A DNA stretch of 64,000 nucleotides, from contig NZ_CP042434.1 in the NCBI RefSeq assembly GCF_007971385.1, forward strand, positions 1,736,001 to 1,800,000, given 5' to 3'. Positions within the stretch are counted from its first letter, which is position 1; the number at the start of each line of letters is the position of its first letter. This document shows, in pieces, positions 7,044 to 58,927 of this stretch. Under the pieces are notes generated by a model that saw only the letters and a list, made by a program, of their open reading frames with translations, ran no database searches and was not told where the DNA came from. This DNA is from Arachidicoccus ginsenosidivorans. Lineage in GTDB: Bacteria; Bacteroidota; Bacteroidia; Chitinophagales; Chitinophagaceae. Both the position numbers and the translations under genes were made by a program.

Positions 7044-7940
7044 TTATGCCAAATGTCGCCTTGAGGCTTCTTTATACAAAACCGGAGATATTTTCATATG
7101 TTTTTTAAATTGTCTAGAAAAATAAAAAGGATCCTCATAGCCTATTGCCTCCGCAACATCTTTCACCTTCATATTTTCCAAATATAATAATTGACAGGCT
7201 TTCTGCATTTTTAATTGGATAAAATAATCCATAGGAGGCATACCCGTCGCTTTTTTAAAAATAGTAGAAAAATAAGAAGCAGATAACTGCAACCGCGCTG
7301 CCATCTCCTCTACGGTAAGCCGGGAATCAATCATTTTCTCCATATAACCAATAATTGCTTCAATGCAATTAAGGTCCTCATTTTGATTATTAATCGGCTC
7401 AGGATATAAAAATGAGGCCAAAAAATGATGGAGGCACAAATTTGCATGTCTCAGATTATCAATACTGAACCCACCGGTTAAGCAATTATACATCTCTTCC
7501 CATACAGACAGGCCTCTTTTGTTGAGCGCTAAAGTAACGGGGCCCCTATAACCAAAAATTTCTAAAGACTGGTTGAATAATTCAATATTGGGTCCGGTAA
7601 AATGGACCCAATAAATCGTCCAAGGCTCTTCATTATCAGCACCATAGGTCAATATATCGGAAGTCGCAGGCAAAATAAGGTACTGATTGGGCAAAATATC
7701 AAAATGATGACTGCCGATGGAACAATAACCTTTTCCATGCAGGCAATAAATTAAAATATTGTCCTTGCATCCATTAGCTCTTTGAATATAATGCCTTTTT
7801 GCATTTGGAAAATACCCTATATGTGTAATATAGAATTGATTGAAAGCCGGTGTCTTTTGACAAAAGGCTTCACATACGGCTTCTGGTAAATCGATCATTT
7901 TTTCACCTTCAAATCCATCTGTTCTATTATAATTTTCCAT
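7044..7940 (-). CDS. AraC family regulator (cupin sensor plus double HTH), PUL-embedded
   Basis: I start at the ATG at 7940 (MENYNRTD); the reading from 7949 would need a TTG. The product has 298 residues. An N-terminal AraC-binding cupin domain (about 40-160) contains ILIYCLHGKGYCSIG and PWTIYWVHFTGPN. The C-terminal AraC HTH pair (about 190-295) contains LTVEEMAARLQLS ... YFSTIFKK and IGYEDPFYFSRQFKKHM. It lies inside the alpha-galactoside operon, 60 bp after GH36 and 45 bp before the last hydrolase. That points to sugar-responsive control of this PUL, probably as an activator. Two paralogues with the same architecture lie at 18806 and 19744. Confidence 0.88.
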   Translation of the reverse strand: MENYNRTDGFEGEKMIDLPEAVCEAFCQKTPAFNQFYITHIGYFPNAKRHYIQRANGCKDNILIYCLHGKGYCSIGSHHFDILPNQYLILPATSDILTYGADNEEPWTIYWVHFTGPNIELFNQSLEIFGYRGPVTLALNKRGLSVWEEMYNCLTGGFSIDNLRHANLCLHHFLASFLYPEPINNQNEDLNCIEAIIGYMEKMIDSRLTVEEMAARLQLSASYFSTIFKKATGMPPMDYFIQLKMQKACQLLYLENMKVKDVAEAIGYEDPFYFSRQFKKHMKISPVLYKEASRRHLA

Positions 7941-8000
7941 AAAAATCAATTTAAAGAATCTTTTAAATGAATCACTTTCTATTTACTGCTTATCCAAATA

Positions 8001-42600: not shown

Positions 42601-42964
42601 GGCCAGTTAAACTCAATGCCACCTGATATCCAGGGGCCTGTTAATCCTACAAGCGCCGGTTTAATAACCTGATTGTAATAAATAAAATGCCGGTCGGCAA
42701 TTTTATCATACGCCATTTGGATTCTTCCCCCAACTCTGGTAATATCAGGACCTTTATATATTCATTCTCCAAGTAAAGCCCTATATATTGCGCATCTTGC
42801 TTTGTATCTAAAATTTTCTCAATAACTGCATTAGGATAAACCACACCGCTACTACCCTGATAAACTCTTTTCTCAAAGAACATAGGATTCTTTTCAGGCT
42901 TGCCTACGCCATAAGTGGGGATTGTTACCATCTCCTTCCACACCTTTACCGCTTCTTGTTCCAT
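39604..42964 (-). CDS. DUF5107 domain protein with C-terminal TPR array, two apparent frameshifts
   Basis: Three reverse frames join into one 1120-residue protein. From 42964 the DUF5107 domain starts MEQEAVKVWKEMVTIPTYGV and breaks at the five-C run 42727-42731. A sixth G on the coding strand gives LPELGGRIQMAYDK and continues through the beta-rich domain (FLWWANPAVKVND, WTWGHSDFGQAWDRN). It breaks again at the four-T run 41643-41646, where an extra A gives YLAKISEKSK. After that an open frame carries at least ten tetratricopeptide repeats to the stop. I see no signal peptide, so it is probably cytoplasmic. DUF5107-TPR proteins occur in PULs but have no established activity; the aldose-epimerase-like look of DUF5107 suggests sugar binding. 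The sugar-porter gene lies 40 bp upstream in the same direction. Confidence 0.85.
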
Positions 42965-43004
42965 AAATATGCTATTAATTTCTTTTAACGTCTTATAATG
43001 TCAT

Positions 43005-44330
43005 TTAATGTCTAATCAAATTTTGATCTAGTTCTTCCAGTGTCTTCCCCTTGGTCTCTTTTACTTTAAAGAGTATAAAAAGGAATCCTATCAAGCAAAC
43101 AACTGCATAGATATAAAAGGTTTTATCGCCTAAATGATCAAATAACACGGGGAAAGTAAACACTAAAATAAAATACGCAACCCATAAGCCTATAACCGCA
43201 ATTGAAATCCCTGCATCCCGGATACTGGTTGGAAAGATCTCCGAAATTAAAACCCAGGTAACCGGCGCAAGAGACATGGCATATACGCCTATAGCCGCCA
43301 GCAAGAACCAGGAAACTTCAGCAGAACCAGCTCCCAAGAGCTGTACAATCAAGACATAGAGTATCGCCAGACCGCCAGCGCCAAAAAGCATGAGCGGTTT
43401 ACGGCCAAGTTTATCCACGAATAACATGGCCGCAATAGTAAAGACCAGATTCACTCCTCCAATAAATACGGTTTGCAATAATTGATCATCCGTTGATGCG
43501 CCAATACTTTCAAAAATTTTGGGTGCGTAATTAAATACAGTATTAATACCACAAAATTGTTGAAAGGCAGCAAGCCCTATACCGATTAATAAAACAGGCA
43601 AAAAGGCTCTTTTCAACAAAACATTATAGTTGATTTTTTGAGAACCCCCACTCAGACCTCCTTTGATTTGGCGGATCGTATCCTCTGCATAGGATCCGGC
43701 GCCAATCCTTGACAAAACAGAGCGGGCTATTTCTTCCAGTCCATTTTTAACCAACCATCTTGGACTCTCTGGTAGAAAATAGGCACCCAACCAAAATAAA
43801 CAAGAGGGTACCGCCCCCAGACCAAACATCCACCGCCAGGCATCGGCCCCTTCATTTCTTAGCCAGTAATTGACAAGATTCGTGATCAGTATCCCAAGTA
43901 CTACTGTAAGCTGATTAATAGCGACCATTCGGCCCCTATATTTTGCGGGCGCAATTTCAGCGATATACATTGGGGAGAGCATGGAAGCCATCCCCACTCC
44001 AGTACCCGCTACAAAACGAGCCACAACAAAAAATAACCTTCCCGGCGCAAAGGCCATTGCTAAAGAGGAGATGGCGAATATCTCGGCAGCCAGCAACATT
44101 CCTGGTCGCCGACCATACTGGTCTGCGACCTTACCGGCAGCAAAACAACCTAAAATAGCCCCCAAAGCAAGACAGCCTGTTGCAAATCCCTCCCACGTCG
44201 GATCCAGATTAAACTGCTGTTGTAAAAAGGGCAGTGCCCCGGAAATCACTGCGAAGTCAAATCCAAATAAGTAACCGCCTAAGGCAGAAATAAAAGAGAT
44301 CCGCAAAACAAACCTATGGTGAAACTTCAT
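43005..44330 (-). CDS. MFS sugar porter family transporter
   Basis: The 441-residue protein has 12 predicted membrane helices and the sugar-porter signatures: GYLFGFDFAVISGALPF in helix 1, the DQYGRRPG loop between helices 2 and 3, PESPRWLV after helix 6, QQFCGINTVFNYAP in helix 7, DKLGRKP between helices 8 and 9, and PVTWVLISEIFPTSIRDAG in helix 10. It should import a monosaccharide such as fucose, xylose or galactose by proton symport across the inner membrane. It lies 40 bp upstream of the DUF5107 gene and forms an operon with it, divergent from the GH29 fucosidase gene. The gene is intact. Confidence 0.93.
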   Translation of the reverse strand: MKFHHRFVLRISFISALGGYLFGFDFAVISGALPFLQQQFNLDPTWEGFATGCLALGAILGCFAAGKVADQYGRRPGMLLAAEIFAISSLAMAFAPGRLFFVVARFVAGTGVGMASMLSPMYIAEIAPAKYRGRMVAINQLTVVLGILITNLVNYWLRNEGADAWRWMFGLGAVPSCLFWLGAYFLPESPRWLVKNGLEEIARSVLSRIGAGSYAEDTIRQIKGGLSGGSQKINYNVLLKRAFLPVLLIGIGLAAFQQFCGINTVFNYAPKIFESIGASTDDQLLQTVFIGGVNLVFTIAAMLFVDKLGRKPLMLFGAGGLAILYVLIVQLLGAGSAEVSWFLLAAIGVYAMSLAPVTWVLISEIFPTSIRDAGISIAVIGLWVAYFILVFTFPVLFDHLGDKTFYIYAVVCLIGFLFILFKVKETKGKTLEELDQNLIRH

Positions 44331-44868
44331 AAAATAGATTATTTACTGATAGTGCAGATTTGTATTAGGACGATACCTTCGCTTATGGTATAATCCCATC
44401 AATTATAGAATATGTATCATTTGTACAAGCGAAATTAAACTGAATTCATCATGTAATAAATGGATTAAATGGATAATTCAATGGACAATTTTACGATTCG
44501 GGAGACTTCTGGAGGAGGCAAATCACCTTAAACAATAGAATCCTACTAAAATGACTAAATCTACCCCCTAATCCTCCATCAAAGCGATTTATTGAAGCAG
44601 AGTCTCGCACGTCTGTTAGCAACCAACGGTTTTAACCAGCAATTTTTCTGATTACCTATAAAATACTGTACTAAAAAGAATAAAAAGTTAGCAACTTTTG
44701 TTGTTATTTTAGCTCCTCTTTCTTTGCCTAAACCACTTCAATAACTAATTATCAAAGACTTATAATACTAAAAACACCCATCCATCACACAAGTCTTTCT
44801 ATAGCTTTCAGCTCCAGGCCAAAAACAGCTTATATTTGTTAGCTATTGACAAAACATTAAAATAGATC
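44331..44868. other. Divergent intergenic region between sugar porter and GH29
   Basis: In these 538 bp I see no gene or RNA. The GH29-proximal end holds a good -7 element, listed separately. The porter promoter on the minus strand was not identified. Confidence 0.5.
44831..44838 (+). promoter_or_regulatory. Bacteroidetes-type -7 element (TATATTTG) of the GH29 gene
   Basis: TATATTTG matches the TAnnTTTG consensus exactly and lies 30 bp upstream of the GH29 start codon, predicting a short leader of about 24 bases. No clear -33 TTG is present at the expected spacing. Confidence 0.5.
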
Positions 44869-46205
44869 ATGAAAAAAGCCTTTGTAATAGCATCCCTGCT
44901 GTGTTGCCTTTTTGTAACCAGCCAAGCACAATTCCAATCATATACCCCTACTCAGTCCAATTTGGAAGCCAGAGAGTGGTTCCAGAATAATAAATTCGGC
45001 ATGTTTATCCATTGGGGCCTTTACAGTATTTTGGGTGACGGTGAATGGGCAATGAATATCCAGAATATCCATGTCAAGGATTATAATAAACTGGAGGGCT
45101 TTTTCAACCCTGTTTCCTTTAATGCCCATGACTGGGTCGCTAAAGCCAAAAATGCTGGCATGAAGTACATCACCTTGGTTACCCGCCATCATGACGGCTT
45201 TAGTATGTGGGATACCAAGTATTCTGATTTTAATATTATGCATACCCCCTATCATAAGGATATCGTAAAAGAAATTGCAGACCAGTGCCACAAACAAGGC
45301 TTAAAAATCTTTTTTTATTATTCGCTGCTAGATTGGCGAAGAACCGATTATTCATACTGGACAGGCAGAACCGGCAAGGGTACTGGCAGAACGGAAAAAG
45401 GCAATTGGCTGGATTATATTCAGTTTATGAAAAACCAGCTCACAGAACTATTAACCAATTATGGCAAAGTCAGTGGTATCTGGTTTGACGGCTATTGGGA
45501 TCAAATGCCCGAAGAAAGCAAGGATAGGAAAGATTCAACCTTTATCGACTGGCATATTCAGGAACTATATACGCTGATCCATAAATTGCAGCCAGACTGT
45601 ATGATCGGCAACAACCATCATATGACACCGATCCCCGGAGAAGACTTCCAAATGTTTGAAAGAGATATCCCTGGTCAGAATGCGCATGGCCTAAGCTTTC
45701 AAAAGGTCTCTCAACTTCCCCTGGAAACCTGCGCGACTTTAAATGACTCATGGGGTTTTACCTTAAAAGACGATCATTACAAAACACTTCCTGAGTTTGT
45801 TGGCATGCTGGCTGGTGCCGCCTGCAGTAACGCTAACTTGTTGATGAATATCGGACCTATGCCCAATGGGTTATTTGCGAAGCCTTTCAATAAGGCACTG
45901 GACAGTATGGGCACCTGGATCAAGACCTATGGTGAAAGTATCTATGGCACAAGAGGCGGTTATATCGGCCTTCAAAAATGGGGCGGAATCACTCAAAAAA
46001 CAGGAAAAGTATATTTACATATTCTAAAGCCACAGGATACACCGGTTACGCTTACAGGGTTCCCTCACAAAAAATAAAGGCGTCTTATCTATTGCGGGAC
46101 AAAACCCCCATCAAGGTTTCTCTAAAATCCGGCGCCCTTACCTTTACCACTCCTCAGGTTTCCGAGGCTGATCCAGATGCAGTGATTGTTCTGGAAGTAG
46201 AATAA
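44869..46205 (+). CDS. GH29 alpha-L-fucosidase, one apparent frameshift near the C-terminus
   Basis: The protein has a signal peptide (LLCCLFVTSQAQ) and the GH29 barrel: NKFGMFIHWGLYSILG, YITLVTRHHDGFSMWDTKY, KIFFYYSLLDWRR and GIWFDGYWDQ, whose Asp-207 matches the catalytic nucleophile, then NDSWGF. The frame stops at 46077 just after a six-A run (46069-46074). A seventh A continues into KIKASYLLRDKTPIKVS and ends at 46205, adding the beta-domain C-terminus and giving 445 residues, a usual GH29 length. It is a retaining exo-fucosidase acting on alpha-1,3/1,4/1,6 (or broader) linkages, and complements the GH95 enzyme. It is probably periplasmic. Confidence 0.92.
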
Positions 46206-46240
46206 ATAGCAAGCCGCTGATAATTAGCTTAATAACCTTA

Positions 46241-46277
46241 TAGGCATGTCTGATAACACAGACATGCCTATTTTTTT
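46241..46277 (+). terminator. Rho-independent terminator after GH29
   Basis: A perfect 10-bp stem (TAGGCATGTC / GACATGCCTA) with a 10-base loop is followed by seven T. It begins 36 bp after the corrected GH29 stop codon, which supports 46205 as the real gene end. Confidence 0.92.
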
Positions 46278-46302
46278 CAATATGCCTCCTATTGCTTAAT
46301 TT

Positions 46303-46310
46303 TACATTTG
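46303..46310 (+). promoter_or_regulatory. -7 element (TACATTTG) of the polysaccharide deacetylase gene
   Basis: TACATTTG matches TAnnTTTG and lies just after the GH29 terminator. Transcription would begin near 46316, which excludes the TTG at 46308 as start codon of the next gene and points to the TTG at 46347. Confidence 0.5.
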
Positions 46311-46346
46311 AGTTATCCAGATATCCCAACAATAAAACACCGAACC

Positions 46347-46991
46347 TTGTATCTGATCAAAACAAATTTCCTTTTTAAGCTAATATATCCTGGCAGGATC
46401 TGGAAATTACCCCCCACAACTGCACCAGATGGGAAAAAGGCCCTCTATCTCAGTTTTGATGATGGTCCGCATCCAGAGGCCACTGTCTTTGCCTTGGAAA
46501 CCCTGAAAGCATTTAATGCCAAAGCCACCTTCTTTTGCCTTGGAAAGAACGTTAGAGATTATAAGGATATTTTTCAGCAAATATTAAATGAAGGGCACAC
46601 AGTAGGCAATCACAGTTTTAATCACCTGAATGGCTGGAAAACAAAAACAAATGATTATCTAGCAGATATAAAGCTGGCCGGCACCCTGATAGACTCCCCT
46701 TTATTCAGACCGCCCTATGGCCGGATGAGTAAAAGCCAGCAAGCCGCGCTACAACAAACATCTCCTGAAACCCGTATTGTTATGTGGGATTTATTGAGCG
46801 GAGACTTTGACATAAATATCACCCCTGAAAAATGCTGGCATAACGTCCAGAAAAATACCCGTCCAGGTTCCATTATTGTCTTTCATGATAGTACCAAGGC
46901 TTTTGAAAGAATGCGATTTGCCTTACCGGCCACTTTGGAATATTTTTCCAGGCAGGGCTACGTATTTAAACCGATACCTATGGAAAAATAA
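46347..46991 (+). CDS. Polysaccharide deacetylase (CE4/NodB homology domain)
   Basis: The catalytic NodB domain carries all five CE4 motifs in order: LSFDDGPHPE (metal-binding Asp pair), GNHSFNH (His-x3-His), RPPYG, MWDLLSGDFD and IIVFHDS. It is likely a metal-dependent deacetylase of cell-wall or envelope polysaccharide. No ATG is available. I choose the TTG at 46347 (reading LYLIKTNFLFKLIYPG), because family members start with a similar Tyr-Leu-(I/V)-Lys segment and because the candidate promoter covers the more upstream TTG at 46308. The product is then 214 residues. It has no signal peptide, though the hydrophobic N-terminus could anchor it. It stands alone between the GH29 terminator and a convergent TonB receptor gene. 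Confidence 0.85.
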   Translation: MYLIKTNFLFKLIYPGRIWKLPPTTAPDGKKALYLSFDDGPHPEATVFALETLKAFNAKATFFCLGKNVRDYKDIFQQILNEGHTVGNHSFNHLNGWKTKTNDYLADIKLAGTLIDSPLFRPPYGRMSKSQQAALQQTSPETRIVMWDLLSGDFDINITPEKCWHNVQKNTRPGSIIVFHDSTKAFERMRFALPATLEYFSRQGYVFKPIPMEK

Positions 46992-47014
46992 GAAATTACC
47001 TTATTTATTCACGC

Positions 47015-49542
47015 TTACCAATCAACAGCGATCTTAAAATTCACTAACCTGGGTGTCAACCTATTAGGCAAGGCATACGTATCATTTTTAAAATCCTTGA
47101 GCAGCATGTAGCTGATTGTATTATCCCTGTTAATCAGGTTAAAGATTTCAAAACTGGCCCAAATATGTTGTACCCCTTTAAAAGGCGCATGCTTTTTACG
47201 AGGTTTACTGCCATCCAGTAGCAGTGCACTAAAGCCAATATCCATTCTAAGATAAGCCGGTATTTCCAGCGCATTGCGATAACGGGTACTGCCAGGGATA
47301 TTAAAAGGCAGATTAGTGCCGTAAATGGTATTTAGATAAACTTTAAAGTTTTTATCAGTAGATAAATAATCCTGGAAGAACATACCAAAAGTAATCAAGC
47401 GGTCGGTTGGCCTTCTTAGCCAACCGACCTGGTGACTAGCTGAGTCCGTAGCTACTTTGTCTACAGATGAAGCTGTTATTAATTCACCGGATTGGTTATA
47501 ATAGTTTTCATAACTAAGACCATCGATCTTTTCTTTTGTCTGCATGATCCCCAGGCTCAGCCAACTATCCGCCCCCTTCACAAATTGCGTAAATAGCCTG
47601 GTCTCCAGGCCGGCAACATACGCTTTGGCATTATTTTGACCGTAATATTGGATCCTTACATTATCAATATCATAAGGGATAACATCATATAAATGCTTAT
47701 AATAGAGTTCCGAGGTAAGTCTGGCGGGCCTGTTAAATAATCTCATCTGATAATCCAGACCCAAAACACCCTGCATGCTTTTTGCGCTTTTATCCCTTTA
47801 TTGAGCGAACCATCCATTGTCACCATTTCTCTATAAAACGCAGGCTGGGCATACATGCCTGCGGAAGCCTTAAAGACTACATCTCGTTTCCAACCACCAG
47901 GCTTGAAGGAAAAACCCGCCCTCGGAGAGATTAAAAATTCATCATTCAGATCATTGTAATTTGCCCGAACACCATATTGCAGCGTATATACACTAGTCTT
48001 GCCAAAATGAACATTATCCTGCAGATAACCACTGACCCTTTGTATATTAAACTTATCCCGACTGTTCATATAAGAACTTAAATCCAACTCCGATCCCCCT
48101 ACCGGTAGACTATAGCCCGCCGAATCACTATAATTCCATTGATTGATCTTACTGTCTATCATCTGCCTTTGAAGTGCTGCGCCCCATTGCAAATAATGCG
48201 CCCCTCCCTTCCAGCTACCCTGGTGTTGCAAGCTAAAGACATTAATATGCAGATTGTTCCTGGCATAACTTTGATTCACACCCATGCCCAGCAAATTATC
48301 CGGGTCGTCCAATATATTGCCGTTTTCGTCCCGCTCACCAAATTCATACGCACCCACAATATCTTGACTTTGCTTTTCTTTATCTTGGTAATAACTGGCC
48401 ATAACCTTTAATTCAGTATGGTCATTGGGTGTGATTACCCCGGTCAGCCCTGCAAACCCTGTACTGTAATAATCCCGCTCGCTTCCTTCAAAATCAATAT
48501 TTACACCATAGTTTGCTACATAATAAGGAGAAAAGACACTTGCTGTGAGTTTTGTCTGTTCTGGATAGAACAAGAATTTTGTTTTATTATAATCCCCCAA
48601 GAACTCCATCCTGAAGGCAGGACTGAACCGATAGACAAATAATCCCTGGAGATCCGAGGAAGAAGGAATGTAGTTGCCAGCGGTAGCCTGACTTTTTACC
48701 ACATTTCGGTTCGTCTTATTGCGTAAGCCCACCAAATAGGTAAATTTCTGATTGTCAGAGACGCCCTTCAGGCTTAAACTCTGCTCCAGTAGGCTCAGAT
48801 AGGCAGATCCCCCGTTTTTTTCAGGTTGCTGATATTGAACATCCAGGACGGAACTCAGTTTATCCCCATATTTCGCCTGGAATCCTCCGGTATAAAACCG
48901 AACATTATCCGTAAGATCGGCATTGATAAAACTCAGGCCTTCTTGTTGGCCTGAACTTACCAGAAAGGGTCGATAAATCTCAAATCCATTCACATATACC
49001 AGATTCTCATCATAATTTCCGCCTCTAACCGAGTATTGAGAGGTAAGCTCATTATTGCTTCCCACAAAAGTCTTGAGCAGTCCTTCGATCCCTCCTACAG
49101 CAGAAGGATTCACCCTGGCCTGGCTGGCATCTACAGCAATCAGCCCAGTTTCTTCTCTTTTTTTATCTGCCGTTACCCTTACATCTTCCAAACCTTTTTG
49201 TTGTTCCACCAATATGATCGTATCCAGACCAGCTGTTTTCCCCTCCCGAAAAATCACTTTTTGGAATCCAGCAAGATTCATCCCTTTAAAGACCACCCGT
49301 ACCGGCATTTTAACAGGAATCCGCAGGTGGAAAACACCATGACTATCCGTATTTGTACCCGTTGATTTATCCGCTAAGTGAACAAACACATTTTCCAGGG
49401 GTTCTTTTGATTTACTTAGAATAATCCCATCATAATCTGTAAAGGCCTTTTGAGCATATAAGCAGGTTCCATTTATAGAACCCAGCACCAAGGTGATAGA
49501 AAATATAAATAGATAAGTTAGCGGCGCTTTTGTTTTTATCAC
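47015..49542 (-). CDS. TonB-dependent receptor (non-SusC type), one apparent frameshift
   Basis: The frame from 49542 has a signal peptide (ending near CLYAQ), a carboxypeptidase-regulatory-like domain (IILSKSKEPLENVFVHLAD), and a plug (VGGIEGLLKTFVGSNNELTSQYSVRGGNYDENLVYVNGFE, seen in pieces), followed by barrel strands. It breaks at the five-T run 47779-47783. A sixth A on the coding strand gives KAQKSMQGVLGLDYQ and continues to NFKIAVDW at the C-terminus. The corrected length is 842 residues. Unlike SusC it has no SusD partner and lacks the GARGANGV plug motif. The ligand is unknown; siderophore, cofactor or peptide transport are possible. It is convergent with the deacetylase gene. Confidence 0.88.
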
Positions 49543-49814
49543 TTGAGCAGAATAATTTAGCTTAAATTAGGTAATAAATATTGGTGAATCACATTGATTC
49601 GTAGTTAATAACGCCCAGATGGACCTCAGTATTTTGCAGGGCACCTGCATATTTGAAATTCCTTGGCAATTACCAACATTTTAAGTAAATCTTGCTACTC
49701 AATTTTGTTATTTATAAAACTTAATTTACTTTAGCTGAGTCATTGCCCAAAGGGTAAAAGGGACTTGGCTTCGCAATTGTATTTTGCATCAATCGTATTG
49801 CCTTAAGATACGTT

Positions 49815-49839
49815 CCTCACTCATGAAGTGAGGTTTTTT
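49815..49839 (+). terminator. Orphan Rho-independent terminator in 49543-50030
   Basis: CCTCACT / AGTGAGG form a 7-bp stem with loop CATGA, followed by six T on the plus strand. No protein gene on the plus strand ends near it, because the flanking genes are both on the minus strand. It may end a small RNA transcribed from roughly 49700. The rest of the 488-bp gap shows nothing else recognisable. Confidence 0.7.
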
Positions 49840-50030
49840 ATGTCCTTTTGTATTCTGCATCCCACTTTTTAAATCTATTTACCTCCATCTAAATAATAGC
49901 AACTGTTCATTTTACTTAAATTCTTATCCCGGATACCCTTATCTAACATATTTACTGAACCTGATTTACCTTTTAATAATAAACATATGCTAAATAGGCT
50001 AAATAGGTTACAATAATTTCTAATATCCTA

Positions 50031-51354
50031 TTATGCATATTTTTTATAATCAAATAATCTAAGCTCTTTGGCTTTGGCAGCCGTCAGGCTGACGACGCCC
50101 AGCGTAAGGCACCCGCCAACAATAATTGCCCTGATCGTTCCCAGCCAGTGAGCCATAACACCACTTTCAAAATCGCCCAATTCATTGGAAGAGCTGACGA
50201 ACATCGTATTGACCGCCGCAACTCGGCCCCGCATTTCATCTGGGGTTACCAATTGCAAAATTGTCCCTCGAACGACCACACTGACTGCATCAAACATCCC
50301 TGAGGCCACTAGGGCAATGGATGCCAGGTAGATATCCCTGGAGAGTCCAAAACAATAATAGACAGGCCGAATCCTGCACAACACCAAAGTAATTTTTTGC
50401 CTGGTTTGGTATTTAGGGGCAGATAAGCCAGTAAAATGAGTGTCAGGATGGAGCCAATACCCGGTGCAGCCCTTAAAAAACCATATTCTGTTTCTGTCAT
50501 CCGGTGAATTTCTACAAAGGCCGGTAGCAAAGCCACCGCGCCTCCAAACAACACCGTAAACATATCCAACGCCTGGGCGCCCAAAAGTGCCGGCGTTTTC
50601 AAAATAAACTTTACGCCTAGAGACAAGCTTTGTAATATAGGCTCTTTCGCTTTTTTTAGGATTGGTTTGGCTTTTATTATACAAACAGGAATCAATAACA
50701 GGGCTTCTACCAGAAAAATCAGAAACATGGAACCCGTTACTCCTGGTATTGCTGTTACACTGCCGGATGCACGAACCATATCTATGGGACTTCCCGATAA
50801 TATACCCATTACTGCGTTAATTGCCCCAAATGACAGCGGCCCGACCACTGAACCAATCTTGAAAGCCATTGAACTCCAGCTGGTGGCATTGGGGTAATGC
50901 TCTCTTGGGGTTAACTGTCCGAGCAGCGCAAAGGCAGAAGGACTGATAAACGCCCTAAGTACGCCTCCAAAAAAATCAGTGCGAAGATAAAATTCAGTGT
51001 CCAGTCCAGGCCTAAATGCTGTAAGGAAAAAGCAGTCGATAGATAGAATAATCCACCACCTAAACAGATATAGCCTATCAAACATATCAGCAGCATTTTT
51101 CTTTTCTCATGCAGATCTACAAAATGGCCAGAGAACATAGAAAATACAATAGCAGGAATGACCTCCGCCAGACCGATTAGTCCCATTTTAAGGTTACTGC
51201 CTGTTAAATGGTAGACCCAATAGTATATAGCTGTGGACTGTAAATTAAGTGCAAAATAAATCCCAAACCGAAAGAGCAGAAAACAAATAAATTCTTTGTT
51301 TTTTAGCACTGGGTTTTTCTCATAAAATCCGCCGGAGCCCATGTTTTTTGCCAT
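50031..51354 (-). CDS. MFS transporter (EntS/MFS_3-like exporter), two apparent frameshifts
   Basis: Three reverse frames join into a 441-residue membrane protein. The first, from 51354 (MAKNMGSGGFYEKNP), runs through FLLFRFGIYFALNLQ and the FSGHFVDLHEKRK loop to the seven-A run 50969-50975. An extra T on the coding strand gives LIFFGGVLRAFISPSAFALL. The middle part runs to the four-A run 50349-50352, where an extra T gives IIVFGLSRDIYLA. The end contains RGTILQLVTPDEMRGRVAAVN and SSNELGDFESG, diagnostic for this exporter subfamily. About 11-12 helices result. The substrate is unknown; relatives export siderophores or drugs. It starts 22 bp downstream of the deoxynucleoside kinase gene in the same direction. 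Confidence 0.86.
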
Positions 51355-51376
51355 ATATTACGTATTGCGAGTGAAA

Positions 51377-52005
51377 TTAAGGAAGATTAAGCCGATGTAC
51401 GCCCTCAGAATAATCCTTATCCAAGGCATCTAAAATCACTTGTAAATGCCTTGCATCTTCTAAAAAATCGGCATTAGAGGCATCCACCATCAAAGTTATG
51501 CCCTTTCTTTGCTGAATATAACTCAGATAAGACTGCTGTATAGATTGCAGATAACTATCCGGTATTGCCTGTTCATAGGACCGGTTTCTTTTTTGAATAT
51601 TTTGCTGCAGCTTTGCTACTGGCGCCTGCAAGTAGATCAGAATATCAGGAAAGACCAATTGTTGGTGAATAATATCAAAAAGCCTTTTATAGAGCTGATA
51701 TTCCTGATCAGCCAGTGTAACTTTCGCAAACAACAGGCATTTGATAAACAGATAATCTGAGACAGTTGTCTGATGGAACATATCCGGTTCCAGCATGGCA
51801 CTTAGCTGCTTGAAACGTTCAGCCATAAAAACAGTTCTAAAGGAAATCCATACCTGTCAGGATCAGCATAGAATTTAGGCAAAAAGGGATTATCTGAAAA
51901 TTCCTCCAGAACCAGACGCGCATTTAATTGTTTGGCTAGTAGCGTGGATAAGGTGGTTTTCCCGGCACCTATATTGCCTTCTATCGTGATTAATCTATAC
52001 TTCAT
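51377..52005 (-). CDS. Deoxynucleoside kinase family protein, one apparent frameshift
   Basis: From 52005 the N-terminus carries the P-loop GNIGAGKTT at residues 10-18, LEEFSDNPFLPKFYADP and YGFPLELF. It breaks at the five-A run 51827-51831. A sixth T on the coding strand gives ELFFMAERFKQLSAML and continues through FHQTTVSDYLFIKCLLFAKVTL, LIYLQAPVAKLQQNIQKRNR (lid region) and a short C-terminus. The corrected length of 209 residues fits Bacteroidetes deoxyadenosine/deoxyguanosine-type kinases, which phosphorylate deoxynucleosides in the cytoplasm for salvage. The substrate is not resolved. It is the first gene of a two-gene operon with the MFS exporter. Confidence 0.9.
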
Positions 52006-52141
52006 GGATCAGTAGGCAAAAGTAAATGTTTATCAGGAAATTGTCGGCAATTGTTGTAAAGTGAACAAGTAGCCGTTTCTTAAAAAAGACAAAAATGTCT
52101 TTTTATTTTTTCTAAAACACGCAGGAAGCATATTATTTTGG

Positions 52142-52149
52142 TAATTTTG
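52142..52149 (+). promoter_or_regulatory. -7 element (TAATTTTG) of the DUF983 gene
   Basis: TAATTTTG matches TAnnTTTG and lies 22 bp upstream of the DUF983 start codon, predicting a leader of about 16 bases. Confidence 0.5.
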
Positions 52150-52171
52150 CAAAATAAAATCTAAAAGTACT

Positions 52172-52660
52172 ATGGAAGCGGATCATCAACAACCAAACGA
52201 AGAAGAAAAAGCGCCCAATTACTTCGTCAGTGCAATACAGTGTAAATGCCCAAGATGCCGCCGAGGTGATCTTTTCGTGACTAAAAACCATTATGCCCTG
52301 AAAAACAGTAAATTCATGCGCATGAATGAAAAGTGCCCGGTATGTGGCCAGGCAACGGAATTAGAAGTAGGATTTTATTATGGCACCAGCTATGTAGCCT
52401 ATGCTTTAACGGTAGCCTTTTCCGTAGCTACCTTTATAGCCTGGAAGGTATTTTTCGGAATTTCCTTTGATATTAATGATAATAATATATTTTGGTGGTT
52501 TGGTGTCAATGCCGTCTTATTGATCCTTTTTCAACCCTTCTTTATGCGCACAGCAAGAAGTTTCTGGTTAAGTTTCTATGTCAAATACAATAAAAACTGG
52601 CGTACGGAAAAACCTGAAGAATATGAGCGGTTAAATAAAGATTTCTCCAATGGCTGGTAA
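52172..52660 (+). CDS. DUF983 domain membrane protein with zinc-ribbon-like motif
   Basis: The 162-residue protein has an N-terminal cytoplasmic segment with two paired cysteine motifs, CKCPRCRRGDLF (about residues 24-35) and KCPVCG (about 53-58), which look like a zinc ribbon. Two membrane helices follow (about 70-95 and 108-125: VAYALTVAFSVATFIAW and FGVNAVLLILFQPFF). The C-terminus is short and charged. This is the DUF983 family layout. No function is established. It is a single gene with its own promoter element and a downstream terminator. Confidence 0.88.
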   Translation: MEADHQQPNEEEKAPNYFVSAIQCKCPRCRRGDLFVTKNHYALKNSKFMRMNEKCPVCGQATELEVGFYYGTSYVAYALTVAFSVATFIAWKVFFGISFDINDNNIFWWFGVNAVLLILFQPFFMRTARSFWLSFYVKYNKNWRTEKPEEYERLNKDFSNGW

Positions 52661-52783
52661 GCTCAGGGCTGAGGCTGTAAAAATAAGTGGCCAGTTATCC
52701 ACTTAGGTGATTTAGGGTAGAAAATATTGTTATTTTTACCCATATGTATTGTTCTGTTTATGTATTTTATATTTCATTGCTGT

Positions 52784-52819
52784 AAAAAAGCGAATGCGAG
52801 GTACCGCATTCGCTTTTTT
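52784..52819 (+). terminator. Rho-independent terminator downstream of DUF983
   Basis: A perfect 15-bp stem (AAAAAAGCGAATGCG / CGCATTCGCTTTTTT) with loop AGGTAC ends in six T that are part of the right arm. It can work on both strands. The rest of 52661-53092 shows no gene. Confidence 0.92.
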
Positions 52820-53092
52820 ATGTGGTATAATTTTACACGCCCATGAGCGTGCCAATCAACATTACTATTACAATTAATATTTTTACTTGATTAGTTGCTT
52901 TTTTTGCGCAGAATATTCGGTGTTGGCAAAAGTGTAATCTATATCGAAGCCCAAATTTTTAAATGGGTAAAAATTTACGACGCTAACTATCTTGTTAACA
53001 AGAAAATTTTTATTAACTTCGTAATAGCTATAAATAAATGATTTACAGTAATACAATTACCCTTATTTGTTAATCAACATTCAACCAAGACC

Positions 53093-54808
53093 ATGAAACT
53101 AAAAAACGGACTACTGCTGCTGATGTTATTTTTGTTTTTTATGCATGTCTCAATAAGGATGTTAGCTACTTAAAAAATGATCCATCTGAAAGAATTTCAG
53201 CAAAACAGTGGTTTAAAAAAAACGGCGGAAAATACAAGGATGGCGCAATGCTTATTCAGGGGGCCCAAAGGAGTTTTTATGGTTAAGTTGGATTGGTCAA
53301 AAGCTGAAAATGTGTCCTGGCATAATAAATCATTTCTAGATGTACCCTATTACTTAGATAATGGACAAAGGTATGTTCCAGGAGCGGATGGGAATGGGAC
53401 CGCATCATTTAATTTGGTCATTCATTTGTATAAGAATGGAGATTACCGTGCTGCCATTAGAACAACCAGTTATGACGGCCTTTCTTACGAAACCAGTACC
53501 AAAGTTGTCCAATTCTACGAAATGCTAGATGGCAGGCCAATGAATATATGGTATAAGGATGCAAGAAGGCAGAAAATCGTTAGTGCCACACAAATTAATA
53601 TCTCCAAGGAGGAATATCAATTAATAAAGCGAAAAATGAGTCATAGACTCCTCTCTTCAAAAGTACCAGGTAATTCTAGAACAAATTCATTCGCAGGATC
53701 AGTTGATGCTAATATGAATATACAGTCTGAAGCAGGTAGTGGGAGTAACACATATGATTCAGCCAATTGTACTATTACAGAAACAACGACCTATTACGAT
53801 TGTTCTGGAAACGGAAATCCGGGCTCGGCAGGTGAAGGTGAATACGCTGATCCGGTCGTCGTAGCTGTTTGTCCATTTGTAACACATACAATTGTCTGTG
53901 TGGGTGAAACGCCAGGTAACACAGGTGGTGGTGGTGGACCAAGCACTGGTGGTTCAGGAACAAGCGGAGGATCGAATGGTGATAACAATGAAAGTCCTGA
54001 TGATTGCAATGATGAAGCGCCACCACCGCCGCCACCACCGCCGTCAGTAAATCCAGACGGCACGACGGCACCGCCATATGAGTCGCCGACCCCATGTGAG
54101 TTATTTCTACCAGAGGAACCTCCCAAACCTGATCCATGTGCAACCGCAAAAGCACAAATTGCAGAAAAGCGAACAAAATTAAAAGCATTTATTGATGGCC
54201 TAAAAGCAGTTAAAGAAGCAGCAGCAATTGACGGAAAAGAGCACAGCATTGCTATTAATCAAAATACAGATGGAACGATTACGGTAACACCAGTTAGCCA
54301 AGGGGCAGATTTCTCCGTAAACTCAAATTTGGGTAGCAAATCAATCGCTAACCTTCATAATCATCCGAATACATCACCACCATCTGCAGGTGATGTATAT
54401 TCCTTCATTCAAAACAATAGTATGCTTCCAAATTATACAACCAAATTTGTGGTCACCCAAGACGGATCAATATACGCCTTGATAATCACCAATCAATTAG
54501 CAGCTCAAGACTTTTCAGCCAAATATCCTAAATCCATATTACCAGGATCACCCCCTGAATTTACTGAAGTTGAAATTGACGGGGTCCGTCTGTTTGATGA
54601 ATATCAATTTAGTCGCGAATTTTTTAGAGGAGAAGATTTCACAAACACTGAAGCAAATGAAGGAGCTCTCGCCTATATTCTGGATTCTTTTAATGCAGGT
54701 ATAGCCCTATTAAAGATGAACGATGATGGCTCTTTCTCAAAAATTAATACAAAAAAGACAGGTGGTGAAGGACCTAATTCCACTTTTGTTAAAAATAAAT
54801 GTCAATAA
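53093..54808 (+). CDS. Secreted modular lipoprotein with Gly/Pro-rich linker and JAMM-like C-terminal domain (toxin-like), apparent frameshifts
   Basis: The ATG at 53093 begins a lipoprotein signal. An extra T in the six-T run 53135-53140 gives LFFYACLNKD (lipid on Cys-19) and leads into ERISAKQWFKKNGGKYKDG. A second break near 53259-53286 is solved either by one extra base, or by one missing G (five-G run 53259-53263) and one missing T (five-T run 53274-53278); the latter gives QGGPKEFFMVKLDWSKA. The product has about 572 residues. A beta-rich N-terminal domain runs to about 180, then come a Gly/Ser-rich stretch (GGGGGPSTGG), a Pro-run and a C-terminal domain. The last carries a candidate JAMM metal site: Glu in GKEHSIAI and LHNHPNTSPPSAGD (HxHP...SxxD). 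The C-terminus ends VKNKCQ. A conserved secretion module with a linker and a peptidase-like tip resembles polymorphic toxins. Function is not proven. Confidence 0.7.
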
Positions 54809-54823
54809 TATAAAATAAATCAA

Positions 54824-55243
54824 ATGAAAAACTCAATTCAAGCATTAACTGTTTTATTGATTCTATTAGTTTCATGTACAGGACGGGCACAAATGGTTAA
54901 GTCTGTAGACGAAATTGATAAACTGGACAGCAATAAATCCTACTTTATTGGCAAAAGTATCAAGCATTTGCTAAGCGAAATAAAGCCTGAAATAAAAATG
55001 GCAAAGTTTGTTCCAGGAACACCAGGCATTAATAGAAGCTCAATTACACTTTTTTTCATTCCAGTTAACAAATATAAACAGTATGCAAAAGACCATAAAC
55101 ATGAACCGTCCTACTTTAGGGTCACGGTCAAAGAGAATGATTTTGAGTATAATTGGAAAGGGCTGGAATGGACACCAGAAATGGAGAAAAAATTCGGCTG
55201 CTATATTGTACAAGGCATATTCGTCGCTAAGGGTAGAAAATAA
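54824..55243 (+). CDS. Small lipoprotein, array copy 1 (candidate immunity protein)
   Basis: The 139-residue protein has a lipoprotein signal ending LLVSC (Cys-18), then TGRAQMVKSVDEIDKL, KSYFIGKSIKHLLSEIKPEI, SSITLFFIPVNKYKQY, FRVTVKENDFEYNWKGLEW and a C-terminus in VAKGRK. It matches no family I recognise; the pattern suggests a small alpha/beta fold. It starts 15 bp after the large gene stops, so the two are co-transcribed and probably translationally linked. Position, size, envelope location and tandem duplication suggest an immunity or partner protein of the upstream secreted protein. That role is inferred. Confidence 0.8.
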   Translation: MKNSIQALTVLLILLVSCTGRAQMVKSVDEIDKLDSNKSYFIGKSIKHLLSEIKPEIKMAKFVPGTPGINRSSITLFFIPVNKYKQYAKDHKHEPSYFRVTVKENDFEYNWKGLEWTPEMEKKFGCYIVQGIFVAKGRK

Positions 55244-55516
55244 GCAATCAAGATAATAGGATCTTAAAGCAAATTAACCTTTATGGGAAATTTTCCGTTT
55301 TGGCTAAAACATTATAAACTATTTACTTGTCGACATAGCAAATTCAACTACACTGAGAGATGAAGAATATAAGTCAAAAGTCGAATTAAGTTATGGTTGC
55401 ACCCAATGAACGACGATGACACTTTCTCAAAAATTAAAATTAATACAAAAAAGACAGGAAGGAAGGACATAATTCAACTTTTGTTAAAAACAAATGCCGC
55501 CAATAAAATAAATCAA

Positions 55517-55935
55517 ATGAAAAGTTCAATTCAAACATTAACCATTTTATTGATTCTATTAGTTTCATGCACAGGACGGGCACAAATGGTTAAGTCATTA
55601 GATGAAATTGATAAACTGGACAGCAATAAATCCTACTTTATTGGTAAAAGTATTAAGTATTTGCTAAGCGAAATTAACCCTGAGATAAAGATGGCTAAGT
55701 TTGTGCCAGGAACACCAGGCATTTCTACAAGTTCAATTACACTTTTTTTATACCAGTTAACAAATATAAACAGTATGCAAAAGAACATAAACAAGAACCA
55801 TCTTATATTAGAGTCATAGTCAAAGAGAATGATTTTGAGTTTAATTGGAATGGATTAGAATGGACACCGGAGATGGCGAAAAAATATGGCAGTTATATCG
55901 TACACGGCGTAAGAGTCTTTAAGGGAGAAAAATAA
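55517..55935 (+). CDS. Small lipoprotein, array copy 2 (one apparent frameshift)
   Basis: This starts at the ATG at 55517 (MKSSIQTLT). The longer in-frame reading from 55397 includes the decayed tail of the large gene and is not a real N-terminus. The signal ends LLVSC. The frame breaks in the seven-T run 55743-55749. An eighth T restores LFFIPVNKYKQYAKEHKQ and runs to VFKGEK at 55935, giving exactly 139 residues like both sister copies. That agreement is good evidence that the break is not biological. It differs from copy 1 mainly in the C-terminal third (FEFNWNGLEW, MAKKYGSYIVHGVR). Confidence 0.78.
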
Positions 55936-56205
55936 GCAATCAAGAATATAGGATCTTAATGTAATTTAATCTTTATGGGAAATTGCCCGTTTTGGCTAAA
56001 ACATTATAAACTATCTACTTGTCGACATGGCAAATTCAACTACACCGGGAGATGATTAATATAAATCAAAAGTCGAATTAAGTTATGGTTGCACCCGATG
56101 AACGACGATGGCACTTTCTCAAAAATTATAATTAATATAAAAAAGACAGGAAGGAAGGACTTAATTCAACTTTTGTTAAAAACAAATGCCAGTAAAATAA
56201 ATCAA

Positions 56206-56625
56206 ATGAAAAGTTCAATTCAAGCTTTAACCATTTTATTGACTCTATTAGTTTCATGTACAGGACGGGCACAAATGGTTAAGTCTGTAGACGAAATTGA
56301 TAAACTGGACAGCAATAAATCTTACTTTATTGGTAAAAGTATCAAGCATTTGCTAAGCGAAATTAAGCCTGAGATAAAGATGGCTAAGTTTGTGCCAAAG
56401 GGTTCGGCTTCTAATAGAAGCACAATTACATTTTTTTTCATTCAAGTTGATAAATTTAAACAGTATGAAAAAACCCATAAACAACCACCATCCTATATTA
56501 GAGTCACAATCAAAGAGGAGGAGTTTGAATTTAATTGGAATGGATTAGAATGGACACCGGAAATGGCGAGAAAATACGGCAGCTATATTGTACATGGCAT
56601 AAGAGTCTTTAAGGGTGAAAAATAA
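56206..56625 (+). CDS. Small lipoprotein, array copy 3
   Basis: This starts at the ATG at 56206. The in-frame reading from 56089 again covers a decayed tail of the large gene. It is intact at 139 residues with signal LLVSC. The first 60 mature residues are nearly identical to copies 1 and 2. Divergence begins at KFVPKGSASNRSTITFFF and continues through KEEEFEFNWNGLEW. Variation concentrated in the second half, with a constant first half, is what one would expect if the second half contacts variable partners. It carries no neighbouring large gene of its own. Confidence 0.8.
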   Translation: MKSSIQALTILLTLLVSCTGRAQMVKSVDEIDKLDSNKSYFIGKSIKHLLSEIKPEIKMAKFVPKGSASNRSTITFFFIQVDKFKQYEKTHKQPPSYIRVTIKEEEFEFNWNGLEWTPEMARKYGSYIVHGIRVFKGEK

Positions 56626-56800
56626 GCAATCAAGATTAAAGGATCTTAATGCAATTTAATCTTTATGGAAAATTTTCCTTTTTAAATTAAACAATATAAA
56701 CAAATTATTTGTCGACCCAATAAATTCAATTACTATGGTAGATGATAATTATTACCCAAAAGTTGAATTCATTCATGGATGCCCCAGGCACTTAACGACC

Positions 56801-57340
56801 TAAGTGATCCGTGATTTGGTCTGGTATTGTTATTGTAAAGATTATCCAACAAAATATTGCATCATCATGGTTCTCAACTAGCGGGTGGATAAGAAAACAG
56901 CTAAGGAAGACACCATTCCAGCGCTATTATAGCATATTATAGTAGTAGTAGAAAAAAACCAGCATAGAACTGTTTAATGTCCATAACAGAAGCTACGCTG
57001 GGGTTTTAAAATAATTTATGCTGGACGGTTGAGGTAGCATCCAGGAAAGACAAGTGCCAAAATAGAGCAGGCAAACCGTGCCAAACTTTTTCTCTGATGA
57101 CCAATGTCACTCTGATCCTAATTAAAAGCCACCGCCCAGCGGAAAATGAAAGCGGTGGCACTCGGATTAATGCCAAGCGGAAAAGAAATATGGCGGTTTG
57201 GTAAAACGACCACCTTCTGGAAATTATACTAGGCGCATAAATTTTAATGTCTCAGCTCTTTTGGTAAGATACACTTTTAAATACCAGTATGCATAAAAAC
57301 CCGTTTATTCTAATTCCCTATAATTTCAGCCACACAGCTT
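56801..57340. other. Unassigned stretch after the array
   Basis: I find no credible gene here on either strand. An imperfect hairpin around 56957-57006 pairs AACCAGCATAG-type and CTACGCTGG-type arms, with an inner CTGTT/AACAG. It could be a terminator for the array or part of a decayed element. The remainder is short fragmented frames. Confidence 0.4.
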
Positions 57341-58927
57341 CTATGCCCAACTATCCATATGGGCATTTTTAAAATCAGCCACATATTTTTCCGGGATTTC
57401 TCCTCTCAGCATAGACCCTTTGGGCACCAGCGGGTAAATTTCTGCAAAAGAGCGCATTTCATTTAAGAAGACTCGTCTGTATATATGTGAGCGGGTTAAT
57501 TGCTTGTAATGATCAATACCACAAGCTCCAATTAATTCTACAAAAGTCTTCAACATGCTTTTGTGGTAGTTGGCGACCCTGTATTTCTTATCATTTACAT
57601 CCAGACCGACCACGAGTGCCGGATCCTGCGTCGCCACACCTGTCGGGCATTTATTGGTATTGCAAAGTAGCGCCTGAATACAACCAAGGGCCATCATCAT
57701 TGCACGGGCAGAATTACAAGCATCTGCTCCCAGGGCGATTGCCCTAACAATATGAAACCCTGAAAGAACTTTGCCAGAAGCGATCAGCTTAATGTGGTGC
57801 CTGATATCCAGACCGGTCAGTATATTATCTACAAAAGCCAGTCCGTCTAGTAAAGGTACACCGACATAATTGGAGAATTCCTGAGGCGCCGCACCGGTTC
57901 CGCCTTCGGCTCCATCCACCGTAATAAAGTCCGGATATATATCCAGCTCAATCATTGCCTTGCATACAGCTATAAATTCACTTTTACGACCGATACATAA
58001 CTTAAAGCCTACAGGTTTCCCACCGGACAGGTCTCTGAGTTCCTTTAAGAAAAGAACCATTTCCCGAGGTGTATTAAAAGCAGAGTGAAAAGGTGGGGAA
58101 GCAACGACCGTTCCAGGAGTAATATGCCTGATTTTCGCAATCTCCGGCGTATTTTTAGAGGCGGGTAATATACCTCCATGTCCAGGTTTTGCTCCTTGGG
58201 ATACCTTAAGTTCGATCATTTTAACCGTCTCGTATTTAGATTTCTCTGCATACAATTCTCTGGAAAAAGTGCCATCATCATTACGACAGCCAAAATAGCC
58301 TGTTCCGATTTGCCAGATCAGATCTCCGCCATGTTTAAGATGGAAAGGACTGATGCCGCCTTCACCAGTATTATGGGCAAACCCTCCGATTTTAGCACCA
58401 CCGTTGAGCGCCTCAATTGCATTGGAGCTAAGTGAGCCATAACTCATGGCAGAAACATTAAAGATACTGCCATTATAAGGTTGCAGGCAATCTTTATTGC
58501 CGAAGGTTACTCTGGGGCTCGTATCCAATTTATTAAAGTCTTTGGGGGAGATAGAATGCATGATCCACTCATAACCTTCTGCATAGACATCCAACTGTGT
58601 ACCAAATGGCATCGTATCTGTTTCCAGTTTAGCCCTTTGATAAATACTGGACCGGTCAATACGGTTGATGGGTTTGCCATCAGTATCAGATTCCACAAAG
58701 TATTGATAGATTTTTGGACGGATATCCTCCATCCAATAACGTAACCGACCCACCAAGGGAAAGGTTCGCATAATGGAATGACGCTTTTGCGTCATATCAT
58801 AATAGCCTTGAATCGTCAGTAAAACAAAGATTCCAAATAAAACCCACCACCAGTGATTCACAAATAAAGAAAGTGCCAAAGCAATGATCAGCGCAATGAC
58901 AGAACCTATCACAAATATTTTACGCAT
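57341..58927 (-). CDS. FMN-binding glutamate synthase family protein
   Basis: The 528-residue protein has two N-terminal membrane helices (about 5-45: IGSVIALIIALALSLF, WWVLFGIFVLLTI), then the glutamate-synthase FMN/Fe-S-type barrel. Motifs include MSYGSLSSNAIEALNGGAKI, HNTGEGGISPFHLKHGGD, SQGAKPGHGGILP, FITVDGAEGGTGAAP, LIASGKVLSGFHIVRAIALG, and CNTNKCPTGVATQDP with clustered cysteines. It lacks the glutaminase domain of true GltB. Stand-alone membrane-anchored versions are common in Bacteroidetes, and their reaction is not settled. The gene is intact and appears monocistronic. Confidence 0.92.
   Translation of the reverse strand: MRKIFVIGSVIALIIALALSLFVNHWWWVLFGIFVLLTIQGYYDMTQKRHSIMRTFPLVGRLRYWMEDIRPKIYQYFVESDTDGKPINRIDRSSIYQRAKLETDTMPFGTQLDVYAEGYEWIMHSISPKDFNKLDTSPRVTFGNKDCLQPYNGSIFNVSAMSYGSLSSNAIEALNGGAKIGGFAHNTGEGGISPFHLKHGGDLIWQIGTGYFGCRNDDGTFSRELYAEKSKYETVKMIELKVSQGAKPGHGGILPASKNTPEIAKIRHITPGTVVASPPFHSAFNTPREMVLFLKELRDLSGGKPVGFKLCIGRKSEFIAVCKAMIELDIYPDFITVDGAEGGTGAAPQEFSNYVGVPLLDGLAFVDNILTGLDIRHHIKLIASGKVLSGFHIVRAIALGADACNSARAMMMALGCIQALLCNTNKCPTGVATQDPALVVGLDVNDKKYRVANYHKSMLKTFVELIGACGIDHYKQLTRSHIYRRVFLNEMRSFAEIYPLVPKGSMLRGEIPEKYVADFKNAHMDSWA

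What the first reader, a model, noticed from the sequence alone, without database searches (positions are those of the whole stretch)
55395..56205. Orphan C-terminal tails of the large gene precede lipoprotein copies 2 and 3
Upstream of copies 2 and 3 are about 90-bp sequences (from 55406 and 56098) matching the last 30 codons of the large gene (MNDDG.FSKI..KKTG...STFVKN), without any upstream body and in a disrupted frame. The duplication unit therefore spans the end of the tip domain plus its partner gene. This fits duplication or displacement of tip/partner cassettes, as in recombining polymorphic-toxin loci.
Basis: seen in the sequence. Interest (0 to 1): 0.6.

Follow-up and report, generated by a model that had tools for sequence, protein, structure and literature searches.

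The report
Immunity-gene array with toxin-tail scars
A bacterium carries a toxin-like gene followed by three tandem copies of its probable antidote gene, and each extra copy drags along a 30-codon scrap of the toxin gene's end, which records how the array was duplicated.

Summary
About 90-97 bp matching the large gene's last 30 codons precede partner copies 2 and 3, within three ~690-bp tandem units that also contain 160 bp of downstream flank. The large gene belongs to a lipoprotein, toxin-like family of Chitinophagaceae with exchangeable C-terminal tips; its tip is predicted to have a JAB/MPN metalloprotease fold. A same-genus genome has two genes with 99%-identical bodies, one with a JAB tip, one with Tox-MPTase3, followed by different small genes. 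But the tails are not alternative tips: they cover almost only the end after the JAB core, begin at the same base in both units, and share an insertion and a frameshift; this genome holds no second full tip. The pattern fits two successive tandem duplications of a probable immunity gene, with the left breakpoint inside the toxin's 3' end. The copies are mosaic, with pairwise dN/dS of 0.20-0.37. Tail-plus-partner scars recur in two other genomes. Displacement by a related module is not excluded for the first step; toxicity and immunity are untested. Single-base frameshifts here are unreliable: 5 of 9 comparable neighbouring genes are frameshifted in this assembly.

The parts
52661..57340 (.). 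interval of about 4.7 kb between a DUF983 gene and a glutamate-synthase-like gene, absent from two same-genus genomes where these genes are about 100 and 200 bp apart
53093..54808 (+). large gene: signal peptide and lipobox-like FYACLNKD (split over frames, two frame changes before 53290), Gly/Pro-rich body, C-terminal tip; open from 53177
   Evidence: body similar to the G390 gene, E=2e-5
54125..54805 (+). tip with predicted JAB/MPN fold and E, HxH, S, D motif
54716..54805 (+). tail 1: original last 30 codons of the large gene, tip residues 198-227
54824..55243 (+). partner copy 1, secreted/lipoprotein-like, probable immunity gene, 139 codons
55244..55405 (+). flank 1, no ORF of note, repeated
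55407..55503 (+). orphan tail 2
55517..55935 (+). partner copy 2; frame change at about 55750 after a T run, which may be a sequencing error
55936..56096 (+). flank 2
56099..56189 (+). orphan tail 3
56206..56625 (+). partner copy 3, intact, diverged in codons 61-95
56626..56786 (+). flank 3, the outermost and most divergent copy (76-77% to flanks 1 and 2); similarity ends where tails 2/3 begin in the other units

Best explanation
This is an array of three probable immunity genes behind a polymorphic-toxin-like lipoprotein gene with a JAB-fold tip. It arose by tandem duplication. A first event joined a point about 160 bp downstream of the partner gene to a point 90 bp before the end of the large gene, giving two units. 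Unequal crossing-over or a second duplication then gave three, copying the same junction. The orphan tails are passengers of the left breakpoint: 30 codons, no motif residue, frame broken before the second duplication. The partner copies kept protein-level constraint and exchanged segments. Shown by computation: the repeat structure, shared junction, mosaicism, dN/dS, predicted JAB fold, tip exchange in a same-genus genome. Inferred: that the tip is toxic, that the partner is its immunity protein, that extra copies widen or raise immunity.
For: Both junctions have the same breakpoint and J12 vs J23 (flank+tail) are 234/254 identical, while tail 1 is the odd one among tails and flank 3 the odd one among flanks, as duplication of a two-unit array predicts. 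Tails 2/3 share one insertion and one deletion. The copies are 77-80% identical in protein, and the next best match by score in 293 other family genomes is 38% identical (G235). dN/dS is 0.20, 0.37 and 0.35 for 1v2, 1v3 and 2v3. Mosaic order of variable sites: 62 runs against a mean of 89.9, 0 of 10000 shuffles as low. The partner follows a tip within 93 bp in 17 of 32 partner genes examined, and tip and partner distances correlate over 15 pairs (Mantel r 0.744, P 0.0002). Tip fold JAB/MPN. Body/tip exchange in G235.
Against: No assay of toxicity or immunity exists. The partner family has no convincing Pfam or NCBIfam match and its predicted model failed (pLDDT 38). The first step cannot be told from displacement by a closely related module, because no same-species genome is held. 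Tail divergence (about 11%) is lower than dS between the partner copies (0.32-0.44), so tails may be homogenised or mildly constrained. The Mantel test does not control for shared ancestry of the genomes. The fold assignment rests on one good model of five (pLDDT 77.7; the others 54-65) and Foldseek TM-scores of only 0.3-0.5, though the top-ranked matches are JAB/MPN proteins. The frame changes at the start of the large gene could mean a dead gene, though the assembly is error-prone.
Confidence: 0.7

Rival explanations
1. Displacement: a related tip+partner module recombined into the locus upstream of the old partner, removing the old tip except its 3' end and leaving tail + old partner as an orphan immunity gene; one unit was later duplicated.
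For: Published for other immunity arrays, with a stranded effector 3' end (PMC5361080, section 13). Single orphan tail + partner scars, with no other copy of the partner in the stretch examined, occur in G356 (L127) and G051 (L126), and a truncated tip + partner behind another toxin in G052/G202.
Against: Here the copies are much closer to each other than to anything else found, and the flank before each tail is a copy of the flank behind the last partner. It needs a duplication step anyway.
Confidence: 0.18
2. One reading: full alternative tips once stood in front of copies 2 and 3 and were deleted.
For: Tip-without-body modules exist in relatives (L103/L104).
Against: Would need deletions ending at the same base in both copies, or one deletion and then duplication; no trace of tip sequence upstream of the tails (SW 17-18, within shuffles); no second tip in the genome except a C-terminal scrap at C1:3913741.
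Confidence: 0.05
3. The tails are kept as homology arms: tail in front and flank behind make each partner gene a swappable cassette that can be moved to the position next to the toxin.
For: Tails are 89-96% identical; partner copies are mosaic; tail + partner recurs.
Against: Mosaic blocks can be explained by the gene's own homology; tails carry frame-breaking indels; tail identity is not clearly higher than that of the flank or the gene's 5' half.
Confidence: 0.08
4. The partner is not an immunity protein but an accessory lipoprotein (export, folding or anchoring of the large protein).
For: Secreted like the large protein; no known immunity domain found.
Against: It goes with the tip, not the body: the G235 genes share a body but are followed by different small genes; a partner occurs without its tip behind another toxin-like pair (L102).
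Confidence: 0.15
5. Assembly artefact.
For: The assembly is indel-rich: 5 of 9 genes matched by G018 ORFs change frame.
Against: Units 2 and 3 differ from unit 1 by 13% and 17%, far beyond collapsed or repeated reads.
Confidence: 0.02

Closest known systems
Polymorphic toxin systems with Tox-JAB-2/DUF4329 or Tox-JAB-1 tips and the lipoprotein immunity protein Imm65 (Zhang et al. 2012, PMC3482391; passages and section 26 read)
   Same: JAB-superfamily tip with E, HxH, S, D; gene for a small partner directly downstream; in Bacteroidetes; one immunity family there (Imm65) also carries a lipobox
   Different: The tip scores below Pfam's DUF4329 cut-off (19.3 vs 28.6 bits); carrier is a lipoprotein body, not the RHS repeats named for Tox-JAB-1; the YxC motif listed for Imm65 is absent from copies 1 and 3
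Tandem T7SS immunity genes esaG, tipC and tsaI (Garrett et al. 2022, PMC9484751; outline with abstract, and passages read)
   Same: Strings of non-identical paralogues behind a polymorphic toxin, similar-length conserved intergenic stretches and mosaic copies (esaG); a small pseudogene resembling part of the toxin sits at the tsaI locus
   Different: Firmicute T7SS, unrelated proteins; here the toxin scrap is part of each repeat unit
Vibrio T6SS immunity arrays by effector displacement (Kirchberger et al. 2017, PMC5361080; passages and section 13 read)
   Same: Orphan immunity genes and a stranded effector 3' end behind the active pair
   Different: Those arrays hold different immunity types close to genes of other strains and the authors argue against duplication; here the copies are each other's closest relatives among what was searched
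Orphan cdiA-CT/cdiI modules (Poole et al. 2011, PMC3150448; authors recalled; passages read)
   Same: Tip fragments without start followed by immunity genes behind the main locus
   Different: Those fragments usually keep the toxin region from VENN on; here only 30 codons, nearly all after the fold

Membership tests
polymorphic toxin system | same N-terminal body with exchanged C-terminal toxin domains | tested here: met
   met for the family in G235: 1089 bp 99.3% identical, tips JAB vs Tox-MPTase3; not observable for the window's own body, of which the genome has one copy
polymorphic toxin system | immunity-like gene directly downstream of the tip | tested here: met
   17 of 32 partner genes follow a tip within 93 bp; window copy 1 starts 15 bp after the large gene's stop
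polymorphic toxin system | secretion signal on the toxin | tested here: inconclusive
   signal peptide and lipobox visible by eye but split over two frames in this assembly; in one frame in relatives such as L025 and L111; no signal-peptide predictor was run
polymorphic toxin system | toxicity of tip, neutralisation by partner | not testable with these tools
   needs an assay
JAB/MPN superfamily | JAB fold and E, HxH, S, D residues | tested here: met
   AlphaFold2 pLDDT 77.7 for the best of five models; Foldseek's 13 matches at E<=0.001 are AMSH/sst2-type JAMM domains, best E 2.2e-4, TM-scores low (0.3-0.5); VIA Z 8.6 to RadC, rmsd 3.3, 107 aligned; HxH and D invariant, E and S nearly so in alignment A4, with one residue fewer between HxH and S than in the JAMM motif as I recall it
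Pfam DUF4329 (Tox-JAB-2) | score above Pfam cut-off | tested here: not met
   E=0.0011, 19.3 bits vs 28.6; 3 of 10 alignment members, the window's included, match at E<=0.5, best 0.00018
Imm65 | partner of Tox-JAB-1, lipobox, YxC motif (table in PMC3482391) | tested here: not met
   lipobox-like LVSC present, no YxC in copies 1 and 3 (sequences); no Imm family at E<=1 in Pfam
tandem immunity array by duplication (esaG-like) | tandem paralogues closer to each other than to other genomes' copies, with exchange between them | tested here: met
immunity array by effector displacement | array members closer to genes of other strains than to each other | tested here: inconclusive
   next best by score is 38% identity, but no same-species strain is held

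The most novel reading that the evidence does not exclude
The tail is a functional homology arm: tail in front and flank behind make each immunity gene a cassette, so the bacterium can add, drop or promote antidote copies to the place next to the toxin by recombination in a non-catalytic scrap of the toxin gene, without touching the toxin domain.
Probability: 0.1. Interest if true: 0.6.

Novelty: new member of a known kind. Interest (0 to 1): 0.36.

Why it matters
Orphan tails give a sequence record of how immunity arrays form: repeated toxin scraps with one fixed breakpoint point to duplication, a lone scrap to loss of a toxin with retention of its antidote. It also points to a Chitinophagaceae set of lipoprotein toxin-like genes with JAB tips and a partner family without a convincing Pfam or NCBIfam match. 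I met no paper describing it in six searches of an open-access library, which leaves out most subscription journals.

Tried and rejected
Looked for tip or other coding relics in the flanks: tblastx of 56626-57340, 52661-53092 and flank 1 against 45 loci gave nothing better than E=0.021. Looked for mobile-element borders of the 4.7-kb interval: no tRNA in 52000-58000, no shared direct word of 9 bases or more between 52640-52960 and 57080-57360. Looked for own promoters of copies 2 and 3: no match to TTTG-N(15-24)-TAnnTTTG (Bacteroidota consensus, recalled) in 53000-57340; TAnnTTTG alone occurs at 53127 and inside partner copies 2 and 3; sigma-70-like sites were fewer than in shuffles (9 vs mean 19.4). 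Partner fold: model unusable (pLDDT 38). Solved structures by sequence: none for the partner profile, and one chance-level row (E=0.8) for the tip profile. The genome-collection scan with the tip gave only 3 loci. The partner family is nearly confined to the family: in 348 genomes of the order (own family included), 11 matched, one of them (G431, E=4.3e-4) outside family f1. In-frame opening of tails 2/3 into the partner was considered as a fusion; set aside as likely chance, since it would bury the signal peptide; not tested.

Rows dropped before counts: partner hits of G206, G226, G291 and G365 (E 5.9e-4 to 9.4e-4) were not fetched with flanks, so 22 of the 26 matching genomes were examined, plus L018. 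Tip hits of G069, G084 and G365 and the second hit of G232 were not looked into. The 17 partner genes behind a tip include L103 and L104, near-identical loci from two genomes of one genus with a truncated tip. Of the 11 without a clear tip, L120 has a sub-threshold tip-like match in the adjacent ORF (domain E 0.076). In one search, 15 of the 17 adjacent pairs were used (L104, near-identical to L103, and L125, weak tip match, left out). The orphan-tail matches are individually weak (domain E 0.0017 to 0.18) and rest also on the DNA alignment (window) or on reading the translations (L126, L127).

Full report
What is there. Behind a large gene (open 53177-54808) stand three partner genes at 54824, 55517 and 56206. 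The three units repeat every 689-696 bp, depending on the block measured. Each unit is: the last 90 bp of the large gene, a short leader, the partner gene, and about 160 bp of flank.

How the repeats relate. Tails 2 and 3 are closest to each other (87/91) and share a 6-bp insertion and a 1-bp deletion against tail 1. Flanks 1 and 2 are closest to each other (146/161), while flank 3 is 76-77% to both. The two junctions, flank 1 to tail 2 and flank 2 to tail 3, have the same breakpoint and are 234/254 identical. Similarity of flank 3 to the others stops where the tails begin. This is what an old duplication would leave, with one breakpoint inside the large gene's 3' end and the other 160 bp behind the partner, followed by a second duplication of the resulting junction. 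Over the whole unit, units 2 and 3 are 86.8% and 82.5% identical to unit 1. The order of two-state sites along the unit is not random (62 runs, mean 89.9 in 10000 shuffles, none as low), so copies have probably exchanged segments. Compared pairwise the partner genes show dN/dS of 0.20 (1v2), 0.37 (1v3) and 0.35 (2v3); codons 61-95 are the diverged part of copy 3 (dN/dS 0.65-0.72 against the others).

Caution on frames. The genome is one contig of 5.77 Mb with completeness 94.71. Of 9 window genes matched by ORFs of same-genus G018, 5 change frame in the window; against G187 it is 4 of 8. I read this as sequencing error (inference). So the frame change in copy 2 (about 55750) and those at the start of the large gene prove nothing. 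The indels shared by tails 2 and 3 are more trustworthy because they occur twice.

What the genes are. The tip (54125-54805) folds in prediction as a JAB/MPN domain (best model pLDDT 77.7, pTM 0.78; the other four models 54-65). Foldseek's best PDB matches are AMSH and sst2, then proteasome and Rpn11 chains (best E 2.2e-4, TM-scores 0.3-0.5), and the closer structural look puts RadC first (Z 8.6, rmsd 3.3, 107 aligned). HxH and D are invariant and E and S nearly so in ten relatives. Pfam DUF4329, called Tox-JAB-2 in PMC3482391, is hit below its cut-off. Fold matches span residues 7-203; the tail is residues 198-227, of which 211-227 are below pLDDT 50. The orphan tails therefore encode nothing that could act as a tip. 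The partner has a signal-peptide-like start with a lipobox-like LVSC (by eye) and no convincing family match.

Surroundings in relatives. In G018 and G187 the flanking DUF983 and glutamate-synthase-like genes are about 100 and 200 bp apart, so the 4.7-kb interval was gained here or lost there. In same-genus G235 two large genes share 1089 bp at 99.3% including the lipoprotein body and linker, then switch abruptly: one has a JAB tip and the window-type partner, the other Tox-MPTase3 (E=3.9e-16) and other small genes behind it. The window's body resembles the G390 gene (E=2e-5) and not detectably G235's (best E 0.53), although the tips are 43% identical, so tips appear to move between bodies. 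The family is Chitinophagaceae: contig JAEUVI010000447.1, titled Chitinophagaceae, has the same length and match position as G142:C310 of the same family. Tips were found in 29 of 394 family genomes and partners in 26 of 394, the window's own included.

How often tails occur. Of 32 partner genes examined (33 matches, copy 2 being split), 17 follow a tip within 93 bp, 4 follow only a short tip end (window copies 2 and 3, L127 in G356, L126 in G051), and 11 have no clear tip upstream, two of these at contig ends. L118 shows another tandem partner pair, without tails between; L102 shows a JAB-type partner behind a different toxin-like pair. So orphan partners and toxin scraps recur, by more than one route.

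Reading. Most likely an immunity-gene array made by tandem duplication, with toxin-end passengers. Displacement by a related module could have made the first step. What is inferred and untested: toxicity, immunity, and the benefit of extra copies (wider range or dosage). In print, tandem immunity arrays with exchange (PMC9484751), effector 3' ends stranded in arrays (PMC5361080) and orphan tip/immunity modules (PMC3150448) are known, so the kind is known and this is a new member with an informative junction.

Noticed in passing
window 41566-52008: Several conserved genes change frame relative to intact homologues in G018 and G187 (e.g. TonB-receptor-like 47018-49575, MFS-transporter-like 50034-51357, nucleoside-kinase-like 51380-52008; names by reading the translations): indel-rich assembly.
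   Followed up: yes
L024 7712-8014 (own genome C1:3906000-3921000): Another orphan C-terminal piece of a tip-like protein, next to an AMP-nucleosidase-like ORF and followed by a DUF6705 gene (E=6.1e-13).
   Followed up: partly
L025 11356-17308 (G235): Two toxin-like genes with 99.3% identical bodies and different tips, a recent tip exchange or duplication with exchange.
   Followed up: yes
L103 and L104 around 7185-8090 and 7476-8381: A JAB tip of 161 codons without body and without the motif's first Glu, with its partner, directly behind an HExxH-tip gene and its partner.
   Followed up: partly
L102 3-2159 (G041): A toxin-like gene with a weakly C39-like tip (E=0.051) and a small gene behind it, followed by a lone JAB-type partner.
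   Followed up: no
window 55397-55819 and 56089-56625: Tails 2 and 3 are open in frame with the partner start, giving possible N-terminal extensions of about 40 residues.
   Followed up: no
L018 1262-7640: The closest search for related loci match lies beside transposase-like and group II intron reverse-transcriptase-like ORFs (names from reading the translations, not from a search).
   Followed up: no
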